The notes under the pieces are model-generated. The model was given only the letters and a program-made list of their open reading frames with translations, searched no databases and was not told where the DNA came from. From contig NW_015622543.1 in NCBI RefSeq assembly GCF_000835495.1, forward strand, positions 3,200,463 through 3,264,462: a DNA stretch of 64,000 nt, read 5' to 3'. Position numbers and translations under genes: made by a program. Every line of letters begins with the position of its first letter. Position 1 is the stretch's first letter. This stretch comes from Cladophialophora immunda (taxonomy: Eukaryota > Ascomycota > Eurotiomycetes > Chaetothyriales > Herpotrichiellaceae). Shown in pieces: positions 22,677 through 38,593 of this stretch.

Positions 22677-23801
22677 ATGCCCTCACCACCCCTTGACGCG
22701 ATCGAGGACATCCTCGCCACCGCGACCATCGACCCAGCCTTGTCCACCGCCCTGCAATCCAGCCGTCTCCAGCCCGGCTCAAGCTACACGCTCGCGGACA
22801 TCAAACAAGGCGCCGCCGCGGGCCTTGCGCCGTTTCAGAAACGACTCGCGGACTCACGGCCGCCCGAGATCACGGAGGCTGAGCACTGGATCAAACTCCG
22901 CGACGACTGGGCATGCCGCATCATTGTGTGCTATTTGACCTCAGACCTCGAGGCCACTGCGCCGCCGCGACCACTCATCCTCCTGCTGCACGGCGGCGGC
23001 CACACTATCGGCTACCCCGAGATGCAGCTGGGGCTGGCGCGAGAGCTCGTCCTAGCCCACTCGGCGGTGGTGGTCTGCGCGTCGTACCGGCTGGCGCCGG
23101 AGTTCCCGTTCCCCTTTTCGATCTGCGACTCGTGGGAGGTGCTGCAGTTCTGCGCCAGCGAGAACCGGAAGTCCAACTCGGCCATCCTCCCGCGCTGCAC
23201 CGACGCCCGCGTGGGGTTCCTGGTCGGCGGCGAGAGCGCGGGCGCAAACCTCGCGGCCTCGCTGGCTCACCTGGCGAGAGACCACAACCTGAATCCTCCG
23301 CTGACGGGCCAGGTGTTGGTCGCCGGGACGTACATCTCACCGGGGCGCGTGCACGAACGGTACAAAGGGAGGTATCTGAGTCGCGAGCAGAACGCCGACG
23401 CCCCGATCCTGGACCGAGCCCTCCTGAAGCTGTTGACCGAGGCGTTCAAGCCGGATCCCGCTTCGAAGCTGTGCTATCCATTCGACCAGCACGACCCGCG
23501 CGATGGGGGCGGAGGCGCCGGTCGCGGGTCTGTCAAGCACGGCCATCTGGGCGTGGCGCCGGCGTATTTCCAGGTTTGCGGGCTCGATCCGGCCCGGGAT
23601 GACGGGCTGATCTACGAAAAGGTGCTCAGGGAGGAATGCGACGTGCCAACCCGGCTGGACCTGTATCGCGGGTGGGCGCATTGTTGGTGGGCGATGTTTC
23701 CAGACCTGGACATGTCAAGGAGGAGGATGCGAGATGCCGTGGACGGCGTGGGCTGGCTATTGGGTTTGAAAACGGATCGAAATGTCGGAGGCCATGTGTA
23801 A
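22677..23801 (+). CDS. Alpha/beta-hydrolase, HSL-type esterase (hydrolase fold-3)
   Basis: A 374-residue single-exon protein. The oxyanion-hole motif HGGG is at 105-108, the nucleophile Ser187 in GGESAGAN, the acid Asp in GLDPARDD (about 304-309) and His335 in GWAHCWW. ASYRLAPEFPFPF is typical of the hormone-sensitive-lipase group. No signal peptide is seen, so it is probably cytosolic. The gene is markedly GC-rich, which makes long shadow frames on the other strands. It lies beside and convergent with the MysC-type ligase (262 bases between stops). It could serve in that pathway, for instance on an ester or conjugate, but may equally be a general detoxifying esterase. Confidence 0.9.
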   Translation: MPSPPLDAIEDILATATIDPALSTALQSSRLQPGSSYTLADIKQGAAAGLAPFQKRLADSRPPEITEAEHWIKLRDDWACRIIVCYLTSDLEATAPPRPLILLLHGGGHTIGYPEMQLGLARELVLAHSAVVVCASYRLAPEFPFPFSICDSWEVLQFCASENRKSNSAILPRCTDARVGFLVGGESAGANLAASLAHLARDHNLNPPLTGQVLVAGTYISPGRVHERYKGRYLSREQNADAPILDRALLKLLTEAFKPDPASKLCYPFDQHDPRDGGGGAGRGSVKHGHLGVAPAYFQVCGLDPARDDGLIYEKVLREECDVPTRLDLYRGWAHCWWAMFPDLDMSRRRMRDAVDGVGWLLGLKTDRNVGGHV

Positions 23802-24063: not shown

Positions 24064-25545
24064 TCAGCACTCAAACATCTTGGCCGTGCTGACGTTGATG
24101 CGACTCCATTTCTTCCCCCAGCGGATGCAGCCCCAGAACCGCATCGGCCAGTACACGTGGTACAGCCACCACCAGGGCAGCGGGTCCCAGAGCGTGTACG
24201 TGCCGTCTTTCCAGGCCACCAGGTGGTCGAGGAAGACTGTGTAGCTGTGCCAGAGATCCCCGATCGAAACGCCAGAAAGCGTGAGGAGGGACGAAGTCGG
24301 GAGGACGACCAGGGTGACGAGATCGTGGCCGGTCCAGTAGTACTTGTCATCCGTGGCCGGGCGCACGACCCGAGTATCAGCCCGGCTGTCCTGGGGTTCG
24401 AAGACGGATAGATAGGCGTTGACCATTGCTGGCGTCCCGTTGAACAGTGCCACAGCCGTGTGCGCACGAGGATTGCACTCGATGGGATAAAGCACGATGT
24501 TTCTCGGGTCAGCCGCGTCCTCGTCCCGCACCATGAAATCGAAGGATAGATGGCCCGTGAAGTCGCTACCGCCGCTTGCAGCATACATCTTGGTGAACTC
24601 CAGCATTGCCCGACTCAGGGCAGACTCGGCAGGGAGTGCCTGGTAATGCATGAGCAATTCCGCCGAGGGACACGCCACGAAGGCCTTGACATGTCCCCCC
24701 ACGACCAGCGAGTGTGTGCAGTATTCGTTGCCCCGGACGAACTCCTGCAGTATCCACGGCGAGTCCGCCGAGATCTTGAGTCGGGCAATGTGCTCCGCCG
24801 TCTCGAGGTCGGAATTCTTGGGAAGCAGCGTCAGGTCTCCGCGGACTGCGTCGTCGACCCCGATCGTCTTCATGATGTACTTCCGGCCGGGCGGAGAGCG
24901 GCGTAATAGCCCCTGAACAGCCGTGCGGCTCGTGATCTCGTGCGTTTCAGGAATCGTAAGGCCAATGCTCTTGGTTTGTCGCATGAAGGAATGCTTCTCG
25001 TGCAGGGTCTGCGTCGCCTTGACGTCGAATTGGATGGCCCTGCAGTGAGTCCTTGCTTCAACAACCTCCTTGGCCATTCCGTCTTCGACCGCCGAGGCGA
25101 CCCCCGAGCAACTGATCCAGAGCTCGACCTTCTCCTTGATCACGACGTCCAGGAGGTTTTGAATGTACGGCGCGGCGCCGGATTTGGGATCGGGCTTTTG
25201 GAGGCGGTAGAACCTCCTCAGAGACGACGACACCCTCCCACACACCAACGAGCCGTCCGGCTCAAAGTCGGCTCCGATGACCTCGTGGCCTGCCTCGTAG
25301 AAGAGTCGTGCCAGCGCCAGTCCCTTGGTCATGCCCACTCCGGTGACCAAGACGGTCCTTTTTTGGAACCCGGCCTTGCGGCGTGCCGCTTTCCGATTGG
25401 CATTTGCTTTGCTTGGGAGGACTTTGCTCGCGAGAAGAGAGACAAACAGAATCAAGGTATCCAAAGGAAGAAACGCGAGGCTCAAAATCACAAGGCAGAC
25501 ATTCTGCAGCCGATGAGCAAGTAGCGAGGAACTGCCCTGAAGCAT
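24064..25545 (-). CDS. mysC: MysC-type ATP-grasp ligase (4-deoxygadusol-amino acid)
   Basis: A 493-residue single-exon protein. As in cyanobacterial MysC, a hydrophobic N-terminal segment (about 14-45) precedes a Rossmann-like domain beginning TVLVTGVGMTKGLALARLFY. The ATP-grasp core includes KYIMKTIGVDD, SPWILQEFVRGNEYCTHS, GHLSFDFMV and the metal site YPIECNPRAHTA. MysC couples glycine (or another amino acid) to 4-deoxygadusol to give mycosporine-glycine or an analogue. The C-terminal 100 residues, with several Trp and a second hydrophobic part (LVTLVVLPTSSLLTLSG), are fungal-looking additions. Its neighbours, an O-methyltransferase and a MysA-type cyclase, strongly support the role. The amino acid used cannot be read from sequence. 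Confidence 0.88.
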   Translation of the reverse strand: MLQGSSSLLAHRLQNVCLVILSLAFLPLDTLILFVSLLASKVLPSKANANRKAARRKAGFQKRTVLVTGVGMTKGLALARLFYEAGHEVIGADFEPDGSLVCGRVSSSLRRFYRLQKPDPKSGAAPYIQNLLDVVIKEKVELWISCSGVASAVEDGMAKEVVEARTHCRAIQFDVKATQTLHEKHSFMRQTKSIGLTIPETHEITSRTAVQGLLRRSPPGRKYIMKTIGVDDAVRGDLTLLPKNSDLETAEHIARLKISADSPWILQEFVRGNEYCTHSLVVGGHVKAFVACPSAELLMHYQALPAESALSRAMLEFTKMYAASGGSDFTGHLSFDFMVRDEDAADPRNIVLYPIECNPRAHTAVALFNGTPAMVNAYLSVFEPQDSRADTRVVRPATDDKYYWTGHDLVTLVVLPTSSLLTLSGVSIGDLWHSYTVFLDHLVAWKDGTYTLWDPLPWWWLYHVYWPMRFWGCIRWGKKWSRINVSTAKMFEC

Positions 25546-26203
25546 ATTGCCTCCAATACGGATGGATGTGTGCCGGAGTTAGAATGGGAAGAAATCCGAC
25601 GCAGAGCAAAGACTGATTGAGAGGGATGGGAAAAGGTTAAAGATTCCACATGCCTGACGCTGGAGAGTTGCTGCGGCAAGGCACCAGTTGTCTAAGCAAA
25701 AGTATTCATCGTATATAAATATAGACGTCACCTAGGGGAACAGGTGGAGGTGATAGGCAGGGCATTGCACTCCGATGCGCCAGGGAAAGTTTAATGGTAA
25801 ATAACAGGGGTCTCAATATCAAGTCTGCTACATGCTTACGTGCACTAAATGTGGTGCGTTAGACAAGGGTTTTCGCCTTGGTCGGACTGGCATGGTCAGG
25901 AAGCAGAAATGGTGGAGAACCAGGAAATGCAAGAAGTTGTAGGATTTGAATCAAAGACACGGATGACCCATCAGATGGTGTCATTCTACGGTCACAGTGC
26001 TGGCCTTGCTTGTTTATGCTGTTTCTCTCACGAGCTGGTTTAGGTCGCTTCGCACTCGACGCCACTCCTGTGCTCGGTCACCCATATGAGGAGAAACATT
26101 CGATGGTCTCGGTCCCCACGGGCAGGGAAAAAGGCATATGCGCGCCACGTACTCAAAGGGTGTGTAGATCTGTCCTATATTCTTGATTTTACATACGCAT
26201 ATA
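25546..26203 (-). promoter_or_regulatory. Promoter of the MysC-type gene; 3' flank of the methyltransferase
   Basis: A symmetric TATA stretch at 25712-25723 lies about 170 bases before the ligase start. Immediately upstream of it (for minus-strand transcription) is TGACGTC at 25724-25730, a CRE-like half-palindrome bound by ATF/CREB bZIP factors in other fungi. The rest contains no supported gene. Confidence 0.55.
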
Positions 26204-27175
26204 TCAGCCTTCTTCGGCCACTCCAACGCATTTCGTGATTTCAACAGCGTCCTGGTTGGTCTGGTTAGAATTTGGGAGCTTTGGACTGCACGATAGGCAC
26301 TTACTGGCACTCCCGACGGTTCGAAGCTGTGGACGAGTTTGCTTTCATAGATGAGCAGCGGGTTGCCCACCCTTGTCTCGTCCAGTTTGGCTTCACCCTC
26401 CCTTCTCAGGTACTGTTTGACTGTCCGATCGGCAAAGCGCGTGTCGACACCATTGACGGTCTGTGCGTTCTGCGTTGCCTGCTTCTTCTCCTCAACACTG
26501 CTCCGCACGTATTCTAGGTACGGTGGATTCCCGGGTTTGATCACATTGTCGGCGGCCAGGACGGAGCCCGGAGTAATCAGGTTCAGCTCCTCGCAGAGCT
26601 TCAGGTCGGTGGTGTATGCAGGCTTATAGTGATCCAGGAACATGAGGTCGATGTGCTGCAGGGCTCCTGTGGCATGCAACTCCTTGATGGAGGCATCACT
26701 CGAGCCTTCGATGACTTTGACGATGTCGCTCAAGCCAGCCAGGTCGACCAGAGAAGAGATCACATTGACAAACTCGGGATTTCTTTCAAGGCTGAAGTAC
26801 CTTTTGCCACCAGCCTTGCGGAGGGCGTCCCCAAACAAGATGCACGAGTACCCAACGTAACCGCCGAGCTCGACCATGACCTGGGGCTTGACTTCGGCTA
26901 TCAGGTCAGTCACAATCCGGCCTTTGTCTTCTCCCACATTCATGAGGTATTTCTGCGTGCGTGCAAATTGGTCGATAGCCGCCAGTACTTTATGCGGTGA
27001 ATTTCGCATATCCTCGACATCCGGCTTGTTGTGGATGAATTGTAAGAGTTCTCTCTCACGCCCATCATCGAACTGGGCTCGGTTAGTGCGTTTATTTACC
27101 AAAGGTCTTGTGGCTGGACTGTACAAATATCTCTTGTTGCTCCTGGTACTTCTTCTGCGGGTCAAACTCAGCCAT
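26204..27175 (-). CDS. Catechol-type O-methyltransferase (MysB role)
   Basis: Three exons (27175-27125, 27072-26305, 26251-26204) give 288 residues. Exon 1 is only 17 codons (MAEFDPQKKYQEQQEIF), joined in phase to FDDGRERELLQFI through a 52-base intron with a CACTAAC branch site. A single-frame reading gives a wrong N-terminus with a TTG start and a wrong tail. The SAM site appears as VMVELGGYVGYSCILFG; ERNPEF and DLMFLDHYKPAY fit the COMT family, and the end (GVPDAVEITKC) is typical. In the cluster it would methylate desmethyl-4-deoxygadusol to 4-deoxygadusol. It is COMT-like rather than a clear orthologue of cyanobacterial MysB. Divergent from the cyclase. Confidence 0.88.
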
Positions 27176-28476
27176 TGCTTGTCGAAATTGAGTCTCGCTC
27201 GTTAGGACAAGGTAGAAGCGACGTGTCTACCGGAAACAGACCGAGGCTTTTCCTCTCAAAAGTGGCTGAAAAAGATGGATACCTTCCCCAGGTAACCTCC
27301 CGCCCAACAATTTGGGCACAGTGTCATCAAGCTGTTCGTCCATCCACTCACAGAAGTTGATTTAACCAGTGGGGTCGGAATAGAAGAAGCGGTGTCAATA
27401 GATCTATGTGGGGTAGCATGCGAGATGCGAGATCGGTTCCGAGCCAGGTTTACCATGAATCACCATGTGTCGGCACGAAAGCAACGGACATGGTTGACTG
27501 GAGAGAATGGAAAAGTCATGATCAAAGTCGATAAAACGCAACATGTGGTGATGATTCGGTCATTTCGATGCAGCCAATGAGACAGCAGTGGGCTAGCCTT
27601 ATTAGGCCTAGCGTGTCCATAGCCTCATGCCCTCGGCCTCCACGACCAACGTCTTCCTCACCTATAGCAATACCCATGTGTGCTTGTGGAACATCTTCGA
27701 TCGTCATCAATCGCTGGATATGGACAGGCATTGGTAGAGAGAGCTGTGAAGGACGGCTTGGATACCCCGGCTGACATTTACATTATGTTCTGCCCCGCAA
27801 TGGTCACCGCACGCTGAGCCGGATCTCTAATCCTCGAGATTCAGGGGTACTGGGTCCATGAGACCGAGGCGCTAGAATCTGCACTCTTTCAACCTATGCG
27901 TGCCAGGACCTGGCATTTTACCTCAGAGCCGGTAGAGACGGCCCAGGGGCATGTACAGTCTTTGTGGATGACACTGCCGGAAGGAAAAGCCACGCCTCGA
28001 CGTTACCTCATTGACTTTTCACGACTACATCATGACTGTGACTGGTCCGAATGCTAAACCGGCGCCAAGTTGACTTTGGAGTTTTCAACATACAGAGACC
28101 GGGATCAATCCCATCGAGAAATCTGGTTTCTGCCTGCCATTGAGGACCCGCTAGTGGAAATCTTTCGCGGACTTGTTGAGTCCTGCTAAAGAAAGTACCC
28201 AGTCTCTTGACTCCACAGTCTTCTTTGCAGTCGCGGCGGTCAGAGGGAGACAATCTGTATGGTCGGAGACAGCTAGCGACCAGATACCTTCGTGTTCGTG
28301 AAGAATGTACTCTTCGATGAGCTTGTTGGGCTGGCCTGTCCATCGACCTGTTAATTGATATATTAGAGTCGACTTTTCCCCAATTGACTTCAACTTCTTA
28401 ATCCTTCACACCCTTTCCTCAAGGCACCTTGCCCAAAAACTCTCATCAACTGGGATATCCTTGGCCACGTTTTACA
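27176..28476. promoter_or_regulatory. Bidirectional promoter, O-methyltransferase and MysA-type cyclase
   Basis: 1.3 kb lies between two divergent start codons of the same predicted pathway, so joint control is likely. I saw no strong TATA box or known factor site by eye, and no gene inside. Confidence 0.5.
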
Positions 28477-30189
28477 ATGTCTGATCTCAAAGCCTCGGTT
28501 GCCGCAACGGCCTCCGGGTTTCATGTCGAGGGTTATGAAAAGATCGAATACGACTTCACCTTCATTGACGGAGTCTTTGACACGAAGCGAAGTGACCTGG
28601 CCGACTGCTACATGCGGTGGGGCCGGTGCCTCGCCGTGATGGATTACAACATCTTCAACATCTACGGCGAGCAAATGCAGAACTACTTCGATCACTACAA
28701 GATTGATCTCGACATTCACAAGACCATGATCGGAGAGAAAGCCAAGTCCATTGATACTTTCTTGAGCATTGTTGACTCGATGAACAAGTTTGGAATCTAC
28801 AGAAAGGTGAGGCTGACATTGACCGCCTACAGGAGACACAGCTGACGCATACACCAGGAACCTGTACTAGTCATTGGGGGTGGACTGGTCACCGATGTTG
28901 CTGGGTAAAAGTTACCACCTGCCGAAATGACTTCAAGGCACTCTGGCCCATATATCTCCTTAGAAATTGCACCTGCGGGCTTGTCGCTAACATCTACCCA
29001 CCAGTTTTGCCTGTGCTGCCTACCGCAGAAACACCAACTACATTCGCATTCCGACGACTGTCATCGGGCTGATTGATGCGTCCGTGTCCATCAAGGTCGC
29101 CGTCAACTACGGCAATTACAAGAACCGCCTTGGTGCCTACCATGCTCCCATGCGTACATTTCTCGACTTCACGTTTCTCCAGATGTTGCCCAAAGCCCAG
29201 ATCCGCAATGGATTTGCTGAGCTGATCAAAATTTCCACATGTGCTCATCTACCAACTTTCGAGTTACTCGACAAGTTCTGCGAGCAGCTGATCGACTCTG
29301 GTTTTGGCCGGTGTGACGGTGCACCCGACGAGGTGCGACAGGCGGCCGACTCCATCAACCGGGCTGGCATCCATGAGATGCTCAAGCTTGAGACGCCCAA
29401 CCTTCATGAGATCGGACTTGATCGGGTCATCGCCTATGGCCATACGTATGTTCCCACAGACGGATCTAGCTGCTCCCGCTGACAGTCTGTAGATGGTCAC
29501 CTCTGCACGAGTTGGTCCCAGAGGTCCCGCTCCGCCATGGACATGCGATTTCCATAGACATGGCTTATTCGGCGACTTTGGCCAACATGCGTGGCATCCT
29601 TAACGACACGGATCACCAGCGAATTTTGCGCCTTTTCTCACGAGCGGGATTGTCCATGGATCATCACCAGTTCAACGAAGAAATTCTCGACAAAGGGACC
29701 AAAGCAATCCTGAGAACTCGAGACGGAAAACTTCGAGCTGCAGTGCCGGCTCCGCTCGGGGCGTGCATTTTCCTGAACGATGTGTCCATGGATGAAATGT
29801 ACGCTGCACTCAAACGACACAAAGCCTTGATGAAAAACTTTCCTCGCAGCGGAGAAGGCATTGAAGCCTTTGTTGACGCGAGCGATACTGGGTACACGGT
29901 GAACAACAAGCCAGTGGAGACGAATGGCGTGTTGTCCGCCGGACTGAAGTCGTTGAATGTTCTTAACGACGACGTTCACAAGAATGGGGTCCAAGCCAAC
30001 GGCCACAATGGGAAGATTGCAAATGGGGTGTCAACCGCTACGAAGCATGCGTCGGATCCTGAAAAAGCTGACTGTCTCATTGAGGGGATCAGAGGTAATG
30101 GCTTGGGCGATGGCATTGTCAATGGAGTAGGAGATGGTGTTCCGACTGAGTTGAACGGGTGCAGCAAAAGGGTTGAAGTTCGAGCATAA
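28477..30189 (+). CDS. mysA: MysA-type sugar-phosphate cyclase (desmethyl-4-deoxygadusol synthase)
   Basis: Four exons (28477-28806, 28858-28904, 29005-29445, 29493-30189) give 504 residues. The fold is that of 3-dehydroquinate synthase, with [15 protein letters not shown] (NAD site), [26 protein letters not shown] and GHTWSPLHE plus LRHGHAIS (metal ligands). DAS..IK, the shape of the 150-residue N-terminus and GHTWSP fit the sedoheptulose-7-phosphate cyclases rather than the AROM enzyme of the shikimate path. Within that group, DDG synthase is chosen over epi-valiolone synthase because O-methyltransferase and MysC-type ligase genes adjoin. About 95 C-terminal residues rich in Asn, Gly and Val are an extension not found in cyanobacterial MysA. 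Confidence 0.9.
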
Positions 30190-30755
30190 TAAAAACAGAT
30201 GGACTTGATTGCCAATCGGGTTGAGAAAGGGTGGTACATCTAACGGGGTTAATTCTTTGAAAGAAGCTCTGGATTTGATACACGACTCACGGGCTCAAAT
30301 AGGAGGACAGAGATATTCAATGCCCAGCGAATGTCGAAATTAACGCAGACTGCTAGCCACGATAGAGTAATAGGGCTATACATGCTGGACACCTCTATCT
30401 TGAAGTCTTGCCCTATTTTTGTGAGCTGCGATATCTGCGTTGATTTCTGCAGTTTGAAGTTTGTCACCCTAGACTCCCACCCTTCTAGACGCGATGGTCA
30501 AATTCCTTTCGCATTTTGACACAATCTCGAATCAAGTAAGATTGAAGTGGTGTATGATGGCTATCGAAAGCCATCATCTGTCATGATGTCAGTAACGAGC
30601 CAGGCCATACCCTGAATATGGCATCATGACTGGACTTAATATAGTTCACCTCTACTCTCGCTTTCTATACTAGTATTCTGTTTTGTTTATTATGTATTCC
30701 CGTTGATTAGATTCCTGAATGGTGCCCCCCTGACTTGTTCATTCCTGTCTGGAGA
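30190..30755 (+). promoter_or_regulatory. Upstream region of the NRPS-like gene
   Basis: 566 bases between two genes on the same strand. It contains a perfect 9-base inverted repeat (30555-30578) followed by further TCATGAT/ATCATGA words, and an AT-rich stretch near 30640-30720. A small upstream exon of the NRPS-like gene cannot be excluded here. Confidence 0.5.
30555..30578. repeat. Perfect inverted repeat, ATGATGGCT arms, 6-base loop
   Basis: ATGATGGCT (30555-30563) and AGCCATCAT (30570-30578) are exact reverse complements around the loop ATCGAA, about 180 bases before the NRPS-like start. It could be a dimeric factor site or a hairpin in the leader. Confidence 0.75.
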
Positions 30756-33700
30756 ATGCAGGTTAACTATTTTACCTGCACATTAGGCCAGGCCGTCAAC
30801 CACCAGCACGGAAAGTCATACAGGACTATCGCCGAGTTTATCGACTTCAAGGCGCGAACTTCTCCCGAGATACCAGTCCTGGGCTTGTACGAGGTCATGC
30901 AAAGGCCCTCACACGAATGGACACCGCATATCTTGACGTTCAAGGACGTCCACACGGCGATCAATCTGGCCGCTGGGGCGTTATCGAAAACGGTTCATGT
31001 ACCACACGGACAAACGGTGGCGCTTCTGTGCCCCAGCTCTCCTGGTCTTTTGTTTACATGGCTTGGCCTCGCTTGGTTGGGACACCCGATCCTTCTGGTT
31101 GCGCCTCAATGCTCTCCGTCTGCGATCGCGCAGTTGTGCAAGTCCTGCGAGGTAGAATTGATCTTGTACGAGGAGCCTTACGGGGACCTGGCGGCGAAAG
31201 CCTCGCATGAGGCATCACAGATTGGGGATAGATCTCTTACCACCCACGCTGTTCCTTTCGCAGCAGAAAATCCCTTCCGACTCATCAAGCATCCTCCTAG
31301 TGGTTCTCCGGTCCCTGCAGTCAATGTTCGAGAGACTGATGTGGCGTATCTCCATCACACTTCCGGCACATCCAGCGGTGTTCCCAAGCCCATTCCACAA
31401 ACACACAAGGCAGCGGTCGGGGTGCTCCCGATGCTCGATGGCGCAACGCACGCGACCTTCACCACCACACCACTCTACCACGGCGGTGTCGCCGATTTGT
31501 TCCGTGCTTGGACCAGCAATGCTCTGATCTGGCTCTTTCCGGGAAAGGACCTTCCCATCACCGCTGCAAACGTTTGCACATGCCTCGACGTTGCGTCCGC
31601 GTCGGCGCAAGGCGGAATGGCACCAGGGACAAGGTATTTCTCTTCGGTGCCGTACGTTTTGCAAATGGTCGCGGATGACAAGAACGGCCTAGAGCATCTC
31701 AAAAGAATGGATATCGTGGGCGTGGGAGGGGCAGCTCTCCCTGCCGGAGTTGGGGACAGCCTTGTCAAGCATAACATCAACCTGATATCGCGATTCGGCA
31801 GCGCCGAGTGCGGGTTTCTCATGTCCTCTCATCGGGACCATGCAAAGGACAAGGAATGGCAGTATCTCAGAGCCGCACCGGATGGCGAGTTTCTCCAGTT
31901 CGTGCCCAGGGACGAGGGCCTTTCCGAGCTCATCATCCGACCTGGCTGGCCTCACATGGTACACATTCCACTTCCCCTTAACACTTCGTGTGCGCCTGAG
32001 AAGCTGATGGCTAACAGGCCAAACGCAACCGAGACGACGGCGCCTTCGCCACCGCCGACCTGTTCGCACCCCACCCGACCATCCTCGACGCATGGCGGTA
32101 TCACTCTCGTGCGGATTCGCAGCTGACGCTCATCACCGGCAAGAAATTCGACCCGGCACCTCTCGAGGATGCCATTCGAGCGTCAGCTTCCTCGGTTATA
32201 GAAGACGTCTTCATATTCGGCAACGGCAGACCGTACCCAGGAGCCTTGCTGTTTCCTCGTGACACCGCCCGTATGAGCAACAGCGACCTCATCCGCCAAC
32301 TAGTGCCCGTGGTCGAAGCCTTGAACCACCAGAGCCAGAGCCACGCACGGATACCGAAAAACATGCTCGTCCCGATGGACCATCTCGATCAAGGACTGGA
32401 GAAGAGCAGCAAAGGCACGATTTTGAGGACTAAGGCTGAAGAAAGGTTCGCAGAGACAATTGCAGCTGCGTACGCGGAAGAGGAACTTCCCAAGGGTACT
32501 GGTCCAGAGGTGCCGGATGATGAAATACCCGCGAGGATTCGTGACATTGTCGAAGGGGCCGTTGGCGAAGGGAGCCATCACTGTTACGAAAACACCCAAG
32601 CCCCCTTGACGGAGCAGACAGATCTCTTTGCATATGGAGCCGACTCTGTCGCGTGCATCCAAATCCGCCGTGCTCTGTCTCAACTACTGCCTCAAGGCTC
32701 AAGCTTGCCGTTGACCGTGGTCCAAGACACCGGAACCATCGCAGGCCTGAGTGATCTTGTCCTTCGCATGCGGTCGGCAAAAGCAGGCGACGAAATCAAA
32801 GCGCAGGGGCAAGACGAACAGAACCAGAGCCGGCATCAGCTGATGCAGGACTTGGTCAACGAGTATAGTGTCTTCGAGGAGCCTGCGTCCCAGCCATCCT
32901 CCTCTCAAACTCCACCTCCCACACGGAACCGAACACATCGCAAGCCAGCTCAATGCACAGGAAATGAAAAGGGCATCCATGTCCTTCTCACCGGTCCGAC
33001 TGGCTCTCTAGGCGCACATATCCTGCACCAACTGCTGTCCGACCCTTCCATCTCGACAATCCACCTGCTCGTCCGCGGCGCCACAGCTACAGCCTCGCGT
33101 GAACGTGTCTTGAAAGCGTTGTCCTCGCGCCGTCTTTCCGTCCCGGCGTCCTTCGATGCCAAAACACAAATCCACCGCTGCAGACTCTCGGACGCCAGAC
33201 TCGGACTGTCCGACGAGGGGTATCAGCGGTTGGCGGAGGACGTGGACGTGATCGTCCATTTGGCATGGAGCGTGAACTTCCTCCTCCCGCTCCGTGCGTT
33301 TGCGCAGACTCACCTCGCGGGAACCAGGAACTTGATCAATCTGGCTCTCTCCTCGGCAAAAGGTAACGAGCCACCGCCGAGATTTATATTCTGCTCCAGC
33401 GTGGCAGCCGTATCAGCCTACCCTTCCATGACTTCTCGTCCAGCCACAATACCCGAAAAGGTCCTCTCGGACCCCGCCGTGGCCGGCCCAACAGGATACG
33501 CTCAGTCGAAATGGGTCGCCGAACATATCTGCCAACGTTCGGTGCAGCAGATCCATCGGCTGAGAAACCGCATCTCCATTGCCCGGGTGGGACAGTTGGC
33601 CGGGGCAAGAGACACGGGCGTGTGGAGCGCCAGCGAAGCGTATCCTCTGATGCTGAGCAGCCTCAAGACTACCGGGTGTCTACCGGACTTGGACGGCGCG

Positions 33701-34372
33701 AGGAGGGACCAGGGCCAGCGGGAAGGAGAGGTCCTCGCCTGGCTCCCGGTTGACGTCGCCGCGAGGGCATTCGTGGAGGATATACGCCACGGCAACGACC
33801 ATCCATCGGCTTGTCAAGCGCAGAGTCACGTCAAAGACATCGCCGCGCCAGCAGAGGCGGAGGGAAATTGCTCGGGAGCGGGAGAAGGGGATGGGCTTGC
33901 GGTCCATCACGTCCTCAATCCATCCAGCAGTGCCACTTGGTCCGACCTCCTGGCCTGGCTCGCGCCGCGGCAAGCCTTCGAAACCGTCCCCGTCCACGAA
34001 TGGCTTTCCCGCTTGTCAATTTTACAGGACAGCAACCACCCGGAAAGGCGCAACCATCCAGCCCTGCGACTGCTGGGGTTCTGGGAAAAGGCGTACGGTG
34101 CTCCGGGGAAGATATCCAAGGCAACAGTGGCCCCGGCAGCGAAGACGGAAGAAGAGACGCTACAAAGAACCAGGAGTTGTCACAGCAGACCGAAGTCCAC
34201 TTGGAACCTCGAAGGCGAGCGGCAGAGCAGGGACGAGCACAAGGGAGTACCTGCTGTACACTTCGAAATGGCAAAAACATTCGACCGCATGTCCTCGCTC
34301 AGAGACTCAGAAGGGCTGGTAGATGAGGAATACGTCTCGAAGCTGTGGGAATGGATCGTGCAAGACATCTAA
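30756..34372 (+). CDS. NRPS-like adenylation-carrier-reductase (A-T-R) protein
   Basis: Exons 30756-31958 and 32018-34372 give 1185 residues. The adenylation domain (about 25-560) shows YLHHTSGTSSGVPKP (A3), SRFGSAECGF (A5) and the A10-like lysine in LEKSSKGTILR. The carrier domain (about 570-650) has the phosphopantetheine serine in FAYGADSVACIQIRR, where GADS replaces the usual GGDS. The reductase domain (about 720 to the end) begins VLLTGPTGSLGAHILHQLL, with Tyr and Lys in TGYAQSKW. No condensation or thioesterase domain is present. Such proteins activate a carboxylate, hold it as a thioester and release it by NADPH reduction as an aldehyde or alcohol. Beside MysA and MysC homologues it could make an amino-alcohol side chain. 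The first ATG is 30756; an earlier exon is possible. Confidence 0.9.
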
Positions 34373-35053: not shown

Positions 35054-38000
35054 CTACCGAATGAACATCCCCTCGGCTCTTCCCCAGAAGTTGCGCGCCT
35101 TGTTGACATGATCCAAGCCGAGCATCTCGTCTCCGTCCTGGATGAGGTCGACGATGATGTCTTCGTCTTCAATATATCTCGGCTTTGCATAGAGTGTCCT
35201 GGAGACGAGCGCAAACTTGATTTGTTGCAACAACTTGCCCTTGATACCGGTTCTCTTACTGATACGTTCCTTCGTCTCTTTGAGCGGCTCGCCCGGCTTG
35301 AGCATAAACTTGAACGGGACACCGTGGGGTTTGTTGGCCTCTTTGTCGAAATGGTAACAATAAATGAACCGGTCATCCTCGGAAGCGTTCTGTTCTTCAT
35401 CGGGGATCTTCTCGGCATATAGCGTGGTGAACTCATTAACTCCAACCACGTTGAAATCCTCGATCAGTTCTTTGTGAATCTTGCCCCCGTGTACTTCGAG
35501 CACCCGTATATTGCGAGCCGTCTGTTCGTCCAGGTTGAGCTTTTTGGCAATGCCGGCGACCAAATCTCCGATGATGCCGTTCTTAGCGACGAGTATTTCC
35601 AGTGGTTCCTAGGTCTCGTTAGGACGATGAATCACTCATTGGCGGGTGGGACATTACCTCTTTACTGATGCCGTCACTGAGCCAGATCACTTTCATGATC
35701 TTTTTCGTCTCATAATCAGCAAGACTTGTTTCGAGAACCTCATAATACAATGCATCGCCGCGATGAGTGGCATATCCACCGTAGGAAGAAAACTGTGACT
35801 GGAGGATTTGCTGAAGGTTGTGGTTCATCCCACGTTTGATCCACATTTTGATTTTATTGTTAGTTGCGCTGATAGTGGCAAAGCGGATGTGAGTTGGGTC
35901 AATCTTGAGGTGCTCCCCGACCTTGGCAGAAAACTGGTCATAAGTCATCTTCTTGCTGAGGCTAAGCACGAAGGCTTCTCCTTCAGTGCCAGGTTTCGGA
36001 TAAAAGCTGACGGGTATGCGGTTCAGGAGGTAATCGTAATATTGTCGCGCGTCGGTATACGTGGCAGTCGACAGGTCAAGGTCAGGGAGGTTCTGTTGGA
36101 AGCAGATGATATCGCCATCTTGAATCTCGGATTGTTGAAAGGTTTGCTTCGGCTTCATAGCCTCGATCATTGAGAATTTGATCTCTTCGAACAAGAGAAT
36201 GGGCGTAGTTGGATCCCAGTTCATGATCCGATTGATCTGAGGTGCGATTTCTTGCACCTTGTCCAGTTTTTTGACATAGACATGGCCAACACCAGTCAAA
36301 GCCTGAGCCTTGACGTCGAAATATTTAAGGAAAACCAGGATCGGGATGTTGCCGCCCACGGCTTGTGCGGGATCCGGCCACTGGATTTTGCCGTCGTCGC
36401 CTTTAGTCCCATTTTCTGCCCAAAGATAAAACGGCCTGCCTCTCGATCCGTACTTGGTCATTGCTTCTTCCATGGTTATCTCGACATCCCGAATGGGTTG
36501 ATCGGGACGATTTGTCTTGTTTTGTCGGCCCACCATGACCCAGAATCGGATTTGATCAGACTCCAATCCGAGCTCCTCGGCAATGGTGGCGGCGAACTCG
36601 CTGATTTTGGTCGTGCGGAGGACTCGGTAGACTTGGGCACTGGCTGGATCCGACTGTTCGAGCTCATAACTGGTCAGGTCGAAACCATGATGGGCCTGGA
36701 AACTCTTTTCTGTTATTACGCCAACGTTCATGTAGAGATGGGCCTCCTCGCGCTCTTTCTTCTTCCTAGCAAGTTCTGCTTGTTCCTCGGCAATCTTGGT
36801 CTCGATGTGTGCAGGAATATCGGACTCGCTCACGTCGAGGAGGACTTCATCCAGTCTGCTCTTGCGGATGTACACCAACATGTAGGCATTCATGGATCTC
36901 TTAGTAGAATAGCCTCGCATGTAGGGTTGGCGCTGTCCGAGGCCACCATTGGCAACGTTGGCATACTCCCCTCCAAAGTTCTCTTCCAGCACTTCCTTCA
37001 TGGTTGACCGTGTGACTCGGTCGTCATCAAATTTGTAGAAGTGTCCGTCTTTGGTTGGTTTCAGGAAAGCGTAATAGTGGCCTGCATTGAAATCGCCGCT
37101 GTGGACTAGTACGCCGTGTAATTGGTAAATCCACGGTTCTGTCGAGGCCGCCTTGGCTTCGTCCGAGAGATAAAGAGATGCGTCGAATTCTTCGGGGAAC
37201 TCATGTCTGTCGTTGACCTTCATCATGGCGTCGCGGTTGATATCATATTCGAATCTCTTCAGTTGCAGGTGGAGGACAGGTGGGAAGGATTCGAAGATAA
37301 CGCCCTTCCGGGCATCCTGCAACTTGTAAGGTTCACCTGCGTCGTACTTGTTCTCGCCCTCCAGGGTTTCAACCTGGATGTAGTCCATGAAGCTCTCGTG
37401 CAGGTTTTTGTTGCCCCGGACATTCAGCTGGATATCCCAGAATTCCTCTATCCTCGAGGACTCAAAGTCGACATTTATGCATGAAATGTAGGTCTTGGTC
37501 TTTCCGACGAAAAGTTCGGGCAAGGTTCGTTCTGCAGGCGTATCTTTCATCTTCTTCTCCAAGACTTCCATCAATATTCGTGACAATTCTTGCACGTCTT
37601 GCTGCTCGAAGATCTGCCGAGTATCCCATCCAAAGGACGCGGTAAGCTCATTAGTTGAAACTGCGAATCTATCTTTCTGGAGCCTGTAGAATAACCGCTG
37701 CAGTGTCCAGGCACTGTTACTCCGGTTGGCTTCCTGCTCAGTGGGGATTTGGTAGACGGCCTTCCGAAACAAGTTCGTGAAGTAAAGAGATTGGAGAAGA
37801 GAGTTCAAATAACAGGTTGCGCCCTGATTCTTCAAACCAACCATGCCAGTCTCCTTCTTGGAATCATATCCTTCGAAGTTGTGCCAGAGGACGCCGGTGG
37901 GGTCTTTGATGATGCGGACATAAGCTGTCAACTTGGCTTCGTCATTTTCCACCAAATGCCTCGACCCATCTTCCCAAGGTTGGTGGAAGGCCTTCCTAAG

Positions 38001-38593
38001 TTCCACAAACCTAGTGAAGCCCCAGTCGCCTTCTTTTGCATTGAAACGATGAGTGGCGGTATGCGTTCGGTACAGGGTTGGGTCGTTCGGGTTCCACAGT
38101 ACGAGGGCAAACTGAACGCAGGCGTACCAGTCCGGTGGAGGGTCGCTCTCGAAACCGTGTTCTAGATAGAACGAAGCGCAGTCGACCTGATTCCCGTATG
38201 GGAAAAACAACACTCTCCATGGATGTCCGCCACATTCGAATATTGGGCCGTGCTCTCTCCTAGACAGTGTCCGCCATTTTTCTATGTGCCATGTATGATA
38301 TGCTTCAGCTTCCACCTCGACATCAGGCAGGTCGACAAGGACATGGCGTTTCATCGTCTCGACTGGGACATTGGTTAGTTCGCGGGCCAGCGGGGTGAAG
38401 GAGGAAAGGCAAGCTGTTGGGTGAACATACAGTCATCGGCCCGGGGGAGGGCTTCTGAAGGTTCTTCGGAGGCATCGTCCGGAGAGATGTTGACGACCTC
38501 ATTGTCCGGGGGATACTGGTCGTAGCCATCAATCAGCATGTCGGGTCCTGCTAACTGCAAGTCATCGAACCGGGAGGCGAGGTCAGTATCCAT
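35054..38593 (-). CDS. UBP15: Ubiquitin-specific protease, USP7/HAUSP type (Ubp15)
   Basis: Three exons (38593-38431, 38362-35658, 35608-35054) give 1140 residues. After an acidic N-terminus comes a MATH domain (about 75-205), then the USP catalytic domain with Cys238 in GLKNQGATCYLNSLLQ and His483 in HSGDFNAGHYYAF, followed by FYKFDDDRV. The C-terminal half holds the ubiquitin-like (ICP0-binding) repeats of the USP7 family (PILVFLKYFD, DIICFQQNL, ILVAKNGIIGDLV). It removes ubiquitin from proteins in nucleus and cytosol. The last 185 residues are only reached through a 49-base intron; without it the protein would stop early. Domain order and length match the family. Confidence 0.95.

What the first reader, a model, noticed from the sequence alone, without database searches (positions are those of the whole stretch)
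24064..34372. Four-gene fungal mycosporine-type cluster ending in an A-T-R reductase
Adjacent genes encode a MysC-type ATP-grasp ligase, a catechol-type O-methyltransferase, a MysA-type sugar-phosphate cyclase and an NRPS-like A-T-R protein. Seen: the domains, the order and the divergent MTase/cyclase pair. Known: cyanobacterial MysA, MysB and MysC convert sedoheptulose 7-phosphate to a mycosporine-amino acid; fungal mycosporines carry amino-alcohol side chains (glutaminol, serinol). Inference: the reductase module supplies the missing carboxyl-to-alcohol step, replacing MysD/MysE. Fungal homologues of the core three are known; whether this reductase-bearing arrangement has been characterised I cannot say.
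Basis: partly seen in the sequence, partly recalled or inferred. Interest (0 to 1): 0.88.

Follow-up and report, generated by a model that had tools for sequence, protein, structure and literature searches.

The report
Fungal sunscreen cluster with carboxylate reductase
A black-yeast-type fungus carries the three known genes for making a UV-absorbing sunscreen beside a fourth gene, a carboxylate-reducing enzyme that probably makes the alcohol side chain typical of fungal sunscreens; several related species keep them together, but the fourth gene's role is untested as far as I could find.

Summary
The four genes are real, with intact frames: an ATP-grasp ligase (24064-25545, -), a catechol-type O-methyltransferase (26204-27175, -), a desmethyl-deoxygadusol synthase (28477-30189, +) and an NRPS-like A-T-R reductase (30756-34372, +). 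The cyclase is MysA-type (at least 50% identical in 59 of 61 bacterial loci found with it). The ligase is MysC-type (homologue in 55 of those 61). The methyltransferase is of another subfamily than the one MysB tested. No A-T-R was found at the 61 loci. Of 13 fungal assemblies with listed locus tags for both reductase and ligase, 12 have them 3-8 tags apart; Cercospora berteroae does not. By cyclase tags 2 of 7 are adjacent. Linkage is tight in Chaetothyriales and patchy or absent in the Dothideomycetes seen. The pocket lacks the usual amine-binding Asp in 120 of 121 sequences, which mildly favours reduction after coupling. A 2021 survey of Hypoxylaceae mentions NRPS-like mycosporine-like clusters in its A-T-R paragraph, so the arrangement is probably not wholly new.

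The parts
24064..25545 (-). ATPG: MysC-type ATP-grasp ligase, 493 aa, single exon, N-terminal hydrophobic helix (residues 8-42)
   Evidence: frame; ATP-grasp fold; homologue in 55 of 61 bacterial loci, 29-34% identity
26204..27175 (-). OMT: catechol-type O-methyltransferase, 288 aa; exons 27125-27175, 26305-27072, 26204-26251; introns 27073-27124 and 26252-26304
   Evidence: model; PF01596; best PDB match catechol O-methyltransferase 5zy5, 1.1e-46; 73% identical over 237 aligned positions to the OMT part of P0347
27176..28476 (.). 1301-bp divergent intergenic region between OMT and DDGS, candidate shared promoter
   Evidence: gene models; promoter role inferred
28477..30189 (+). DDGS: 2-desmethyl-4-deoxygadusol synthase, 504 aa; introns 28807-28857, 28905-29004, 29446-29492
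   Evidence: PF01761; orthologue P0121 best PDB match 5tpr 9.6e-148, next 4p53 8.2e-63, then DHQS 3.1e-30; 61 bacterial loci
30756..34372 (+). ATR: NRPS-like adenylation-thiolation-reductase protein, 1185 aa; exons 30756-31958 and 32018-34372
   Evidence: PF00501, PF23562, PF00550, PF07993; Ser611, Lys533, Tyr895 and Lys899 in 121 of 121 aligned; homologues beside ATPG/DDGS
35619..38354 (-). Right border: USP7-type ubiquitin hydrolase, not part of the cluster
22677..23801 (+). Left neighbour: alpha/beta-hydrolase (PF07859), tail to tail with ATPG; membership unknown

Best explanation
A four-gene cluster for a fungal mycosporine whose side chain is an amino alcohol. DDGS cyclises sedoheptulose 7-phosphate, OMT methylates the product to 4-deoxygadusol, and ATPG couples an amino acid (glutamine, glutamate or serine are candidates). 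The A-T-R enzyme then adenylates the free carboxyl of the mycosporine-amino acid, holds it as a thioester on its carrier domain, and the R domain reduces it to the alcohol, directly or through an aldehyde. Shown here: gene content, domain types, catalytic residues, linkage in relatives. Known for the Phaffia trio from PMC10057719: the first three steps (with glutaminol as the coupled unit). Inferred: that the A-T-R acts on this pathway, that it works after coupling, and which amino acid is used.
For: Linkage: 12 of 13 same-assembly tag pairs ATR-ATPG lie 3-8 apart; in Exophiala spinifera and E. bonariae the DDGS tag is next to the ATR tag. 26 of 120 listed ATR hits share a contig length with one of 120 listed ATPG hits, 8 of them on contigs of 11-85 kb. 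The gene has one copy; the best-scoring other place in the genome is 32% identical to the orthologue P0003 and 29% to the window protein. Catalytic residues are intact in 121 of 121. The pocket position that holds Asp in NRPS domains of the same genome is Gly in 120 of 121, as expected if no free alpha-amine is bound. The R domain's best solved neighbours are the N. crassa carboxylate reductase (8aep) and the myxalamid R domain (4u7w, 4w4t). Chemistry: one fungus, Pyronema omphalodes, is reported to hold an acid form (mycosporine-serine) and alcohol forms (glutamicol, glutaminol glucoside) (PMC4665425, passages); [quoted passage not shown] S. nodorum is recalled to be placed elsewhere today).
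Against: The Phaffia trio is reported to give mycosporine-glutaminol in S. cerevisiae without any A-T-R (identity by HPLC only). ATR homologues lie far from the trio in Cercospora berteroae and, by DDGS tags, in 5 of 7 assemblies. Pseudocercospora fuligena and Exophiala viscosa have listed DDGS and ATPG on one contig and the listed ATR on another (possibly other assemblies). No named Lecanoromycete ATR is among the best 120 of 916 hits although lichens carry DDGS, and a Cladonia is reported to make mycosporine-glutamicol (PMC9318770, search listing); the list cuts at about 44% identity, so this is untested. Pyronema itself is not named in the ATR list, and the acid and alcohol forms cited from it are of different amino acids. 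A missing Asp is also normal in aryl- and acyl-activating enzymes (recalled), and another reductase of the same genome lacks it too (L005), so the pocket argument is weak alone. The A-domain model was poor at the pocket.
Confidence: 0.55

Rival explanations
1. Same pathway, other order: the A-T-R reduces free glutamine, glutamate or serine to the amino alcohol, which the ligase then couples to 4-deoxygadusol, as stated for Phaffia.
For: PMC10057719 states that the ATP-grasp ligase incorporates glutaminol. Same linkage evidence as the best explanation.
Against: No Asp at the alpha-amine position in 120 of 121 sequences, against FDVS in the NRPS domains of the same genome. An acid form and alcohol forms of mycosporines are reported from one fungus, though of different amino acids.
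Confidence: 0.2
2. The A-T-R enzyme serves an unrelated acid and is a neighbour by inherited gene order only.
For: Homologues in several Dothideomycetes are about 25 or more genes from DDGS or on another contig; the A-domain's only PDB sequence matches are 4-coumarate CoA ligases.
Against: Tight linkage persists in Fonsecaea, Cladophialophora, Exophiala, Knufia, Cyphellophora and Zasmidium while reductase identity to the window falls to 46-52%; the genes on the right flank are of unrelated cellular types.
Confidence: 0.12
3. The A-T-R works on the mycosporine but stops at an aldehyde, which cyclises or condenses, giving another product than the simple alcohol.
For: The nearest solved R domain is that of a fungal carboxylate reductase, a class recalled to release aldehydes.
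Against: The next structural neighbour is the myxalamid R domain, recalled to carry out the four-electron reduction to an amino alcohol. Many reported fungal mycosporines are alcohols, though acid forms are reported too.
Confidence: 0.1

Closest known systems
Phaffia rhodozyma MYC cluster DDGS-OMT-ATPG (PMC10057719)
   Same: Same three core enzymes, DDGS divergent from OMT and ATPG, OMT and ATPG in one direction; matching stretch LETxNLHEIxLDRVIAxGHTWSP in DDGS.
   Different: No A-T-R gene is reported in it; reported to suffice for mycosporine-glutaminol.
Cyanobacterial and actinobacterial mysA-mysB-mysC(-D/-E)
   Same: MysA-type cyclase (at least 50% identity at 59 of 61 loci) and MysC-type ligase (29-34% at 55 of 61).
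   Different: The methyltransferase is of another subfamily than the MysB tested; no A-T-R found at 61 loci; no MysD-type or condensation-domain gene found in the fungal cluster.
NRPS-like mycosporine-like clusters of Hypoxylaceae (PMC8403587)
   Same: NRPS-like gene, in the paragraph on A-T-R enzymes, with mycosporine-like clusters in most Hypoxylaceae; compounds unidentified.
   Different: Other class of fungi (recalled); the passages seen give no gene order, do not state the domain order for these clusters, and give no role for the reductase.
Neurospora crassa carboxylate reductase (8aep) and myxalamid MxaA R domain (4w4t, 4u7w)
   Same: R-domain fold and sequence relatives.
   Different: Substrates and pathways unrelated (recalled); about 21-22% identity in the fold alignment.

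Membership tests
[quoted passage not shown]
   Orthologue P0121: 5tpr 9.6e-148, 4p53 8.2e-63, best DHQS 3.1e-30; 5tpr is deposited as '3-dehydroquinate synthase' and 4p53 as 'Cyclase'; that they are the Anabaena DDGS and a valiolone-type cyclase is recalled
2-desmethyl-4-deoxygadusol synthase (MysA/DDGS) | Converts sedoheptulose 7-phosphate | not testable with these tools
   needs enzyme assay
MysC-type ATP-grasp ligase | ATP-grasp fold and homology to the ligase encoded beside MysA | tested here: met
   (55 of 61 loci)
MysB O-methyltransferase | Same subfamily as the bacterial MysB | tested here: not met
   Window OMT is nearest to COMT (1.1e-46; family-3 type 2.7e-13, CCoA types weaker). One MysB (L027) is nearest to bacterial O-methyltransferases (1.5e-32) and CCoA types; classical COMT chains 7.2e-11 or weaker. 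One chain deposited as catechol-O-methyltransferase, 2avd, scores 6.2e-32 there; it is recalled to be the COMT-domain protein 1, not COMT. Window OMT gives weak hits at 13 of 61 bacterial loci
NRPS-like A-T-R reductase | A, T and R domains with catalytic residues; no condensation or thioesterase domain | tested here: met
MysD / MysE (second-residue enzymes) | D-Ala-D-Ala-ligase-like or C-A-T-TE gene in the cluster | tested here: not met
   none among 24 window proteins scanned (not every window frame); 11 condensation-domain matches in the genome, none in the window
Fungal mycosporine cluster (Phaffia type) | DDGS, OMT and ATPG clustered, DDGS divergent | tested here: met
Mycosporine amino-alcohol pathway | Product carries glutaminol, glutamicol or serinol and depends on the A-T-R | not testable with these tools
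   needs metabolite analysis of a deletion strain

The most novel reading that the evidence does not exclude
This A-T-R family is the missing enzyme for the alcohol side chains of ascomycete mycosporines. It loads the finished mycosporine-amino acid onto a carrier domain and reduces it off as the alcohol, a post-assembly use of an NRPS module, and the homologues of Ascochyta, Hortaea, Aureobasidium and others do the same, from a separate locus where they are unlinked.
Probability: 0.35. Interest if true: 0.75.

Novelty: new variant of a known kind. Interest (0 to 1): 0.55.

Why it matters
Many fungal mycosporines differ from cyanobacterial ones by amino-alcohol side chains, and in the papers seen no gene has been assigned to that reduction. 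A reductase held beside the core genes across many black fungi gives a single testable candidate, separates two possible reaction orders, and could allow mycosporine-alcohols to be made in yeast. It also frames the Phaffia result, where the passages read do not explain the source of glutaminol, as a question that can be tested.

Tried and rejected
Pfam for the ligase gave nothing and sequence search of PDB gave only weak SDR-type matches; a fold model settled it. NCBIfam gave no specific name for the ligase, the cyclase orthologue or the reductase orthologue. The idea that the ATR is Cochliobolus NPS10, or that the name 'Nps10' in Fulvia tells its function, was dropped without a direct sequence test: numbering differs between species (recalled), and the C. 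fulvum paper lists its NPS10 among pseudogenes or truncated genes (passages). The idea of clade-specific pockets (linked versus unlinked reductases) was rejected: segments A3-A8 are about 70% identical to the window in both clades, with one clade-specific site (306) in residues 196-455. An AlphaFold2 model of a full-length relative was too uncertain at the pocket (mean pLDDT 73, pTM 0.53) to read a substrate from it. A search for an ATR at 61 bacterial loci found none at 1e-5 (up to 8-kb flanks, frames of 120 aa or more, 19 of 61 loci shorter than 17 kb); relaxed, two loci (L053, L021) gave weak matches to the A domain only (8.6e-4 and 0.008), and a spiked distant reductase was found.

Rows set aside before counts: for tag distances I used only assemblies whose tag prefix shows in both lists; JGI protein numbers (M409DRAFT, COCMIDRAFT) were left out because they are not positional; species present in both lists under different assemblies (Fonsecaea multimorphosa, Exophiala xenobiotica, E. 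mesophila) were not counted. Only the best 120 of 916, 3193 and 1392 hits were listed. 61 bacterial loci include one (L081) whose cyclase is only 28% identical and is hardly a MysA.

Full report
What is there. The window lies in a 42.2-Mb genome of 39 contigs. The closest named relatives of the cluster proteins are Cladophialophora, Fonsecaea and Exophiala, so the host is most likely a member of Herpotrichiellaceae (classification recalled); the ligase is 90% identical to one of Cladophialophora immunda. The four genes of the finding are present. I placed the introns by hand; all six are GT-AG and carry branch-like motifs, and the ATR junction reads through into sequence conserved in relatives. 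Two borders differ from the raw frames: the OMT runs from 27175 to 26204, and the reductase start is taken at the ATG at 30756.

What each gene is. DDGS: Pfam DHQ_synthase; its orthologue P0121 matches 5tpr far better than a valiolone-type cyclase or dehydroquinate synthases (identities of 5tpr and 4p53 recalled). The stretch [27 protein letters not shown] corresponds to the stretch that PMC10057719 (parts 1 and 2 of 7 read; passages) uses to tell fungal Ddgs from Dhqs. The genome shows one other place of this family, in an open frame of 1728 aa as expected for AROM. Ligase: no Pfam family, but an AlphaFold2 model with mean pLDDT 87 falls among ATP-grasp enzymes, first an L-amino acid ligase, 3vot. 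A scan with the fungal cyclase alignment found 61 bacterial loci; the window cyclase is at least 50% identical at 59 of 61, 49% and 28% at the other two, and 55 of 61 carry a homologue of the ligase at 29-34% identity. Methyltransferase: nearest to catechol O-methyltransferases, whereas the one MysB tested (L027) is nearest to the bacterial/caffeoyl-CoA type (among its top hits is 2avd, deposited as a catechol-O-methyltransferase but recalled to be a COMT-domain protein of that other type). Reductase: A, T and R domains.

The reductase is intact and distinctive. In an alignment of the window protein with the 120 listed relatives, Ser611 (carrier), Lys533 (adenylation), Tyr895 and Lys899 (R domain) are the same in 121 of 121 (roles of these residues recalled). 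There is one copy; the best-scoring other place in the genome is 32% identical to its orthologue P0003. At the A4 motif the NRPS adenylation domains of the same genome read F-D-V-S, the window reads Y-H-G-G; the position of the Asp is Gly in 120 of 121 and Asp in one, P0006. That this Asp binds the free alpha-amine in amino-acid-activating domains is recalled. Its absence fits a substrate whose amine is already bonded to the ring, but fits aryl and acyl acids as well, and the nearest paralogue (L005) lacks it too.

Co-conservation. Locus tags in the homologue lists allow a synteny test. Of 13 assemblies with tags for both ATR and ATPG, 12 have them 3 to 8 apart (Fonsecaea erecta, F. monophora, F. 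nubica, Cladophialophora yegresii, C. carrionii, Exophiala bonariae, Zasmidium cellare 3; C. chaetospira, E. spinifera, Cyphellophora europaea 4; Knufia peltigerae 5; C. psammophila 8), and one, Cercospora berteroae, has them far apart on different contigs. Of 7 assemblies with tags for both ATR and DDGS, 2 are adjacent (E. spinifera, E. bonariae); in Meristemomyces frigidus, Oleoguttula mirabilis and Dothideomycetes sp. NU459 they are 69, 76 and 118 tags apart on a shared contig, in Neocucurbitaria 250 tag units (about 25 genes if numbered by tens), and in Hortaea werneckii on different contigs. Pseudocercospora fuligena and Exophiala viscosa have listed DDGS and ATPG on one contig and the listed ATR on another. 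In a FastTree tree all 26 ATPG-linked rows fall in one clade of 66 rows (support 87); of the other 55 rows (named ones: Pleosporales, Dothideales and relatives, classification recalled) none shares a contig with a listed ATPG and five share one with a listed DDGS. That absence is partly a limit of the lists: few ligases of those orders are among the 120 listed. The A-domain core is about 70% identical to the window in both clades, so the substrate may be the same.

How it probably works. The first three steps follow the Phaffia genetics (PMC10057719). The fourth is inferred: activation of the side-chain carboxyl, thioester on the carrier, reductive release. The R domain's nearest solved relatives are the N. 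crassa carboxylate reductase and the myxalamid R domain. Fungal chemistry is compatible with a reduction after coupling: Pyronema is reported to hold mycosporine-serine as well as glutamicol and glutaminol-glucoside forms (PMC4665425, passages), and genus names in the ATR list are reported producers of glutamicol glucoside (Ascochyta, Cladosporium, Septoria; other species). The main difficulty is the report that the Phaffia trio alone makes mycosporine-glutaminol in S. cerevisiae; it rests on HPLC co-migration, and the source of glutaminol is not explained in the passages seen. Acid-type mycosporines also occur in fungi, for example mycosporine-alanine signals in Beauveria (PMC8952764, passages), so an A-T-R is not expected in every producer.

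What was known. The three-gene fungal set is known: PMC10057719, and a table in PMC10384724 lists Aspergillus clavatus and A. nidulans genes (passage). PMC8403587 (passages) says, in its paragraph on A-T-R NRPS-like enzymes, that NRPS-like mycosporine-like clusters occur in most Hypoxylaceae, with unidentified products. Ten full-text searches of the open-access library showed no paper, by listing or in the passages read, that assigns the amino-alcohol reduction to such a gene; most subscription papers are not in that library. Hence: a variant of a known cluster, with a clear and testable hypothesis for the extra gene.

Noticed in passing
G000:C8:597356-598792 (-), outside the window: A second MysC-like ATP-grasp gene (33% identity to the window ligase, 563-aa open frame); the genome shows only two dehydroquinate-synthase-type places, on C3 and C7, so it has no cyclase beside it.
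   Followed up: no
window 26204-27175 and L027:9220-10065: The fungal and bacterial clusters seem to use methyltransferases of different subfamilies for what should be the same step: a likely case of enzyme replacement, checked with one bacterial MysB only.
   Followed up: partly
P0347 (Oleoguttula sp. LTR04_001464): One annotated protein of 743 aa joins the methyltransferase and the ligase; it may be a fusion or a merged annotation.
   Followed up: no
window 25420-25524 (ligase residues 8-42): The ligase has an N-terminal hydrophobic helix, kept in the consensus of an alignment of 30, which suggests a membrane-bound enzyme; the whole protein has no Pfam family.
   Followed up: partly
Meristemomyces frigidus, Oleoguttula mirabilis, Dothideomycetes sp. 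NU459 (P0066/P0154, P0067/P0158, P0114/P0150): Reductase and cyclase lie 69-118 tags apart on the same contig of 0.3-0.55 Mb, which looks like retained chromosomal linkage without a tight cluster.
   Followed up: no
window 22677-23801 (+): An alpha/beta-hydrolase gene ends 262 bp from the end of the ligase gene, tail to tail; whether it belongs to the cluster in relatives could not be checked.
   Followed up: no
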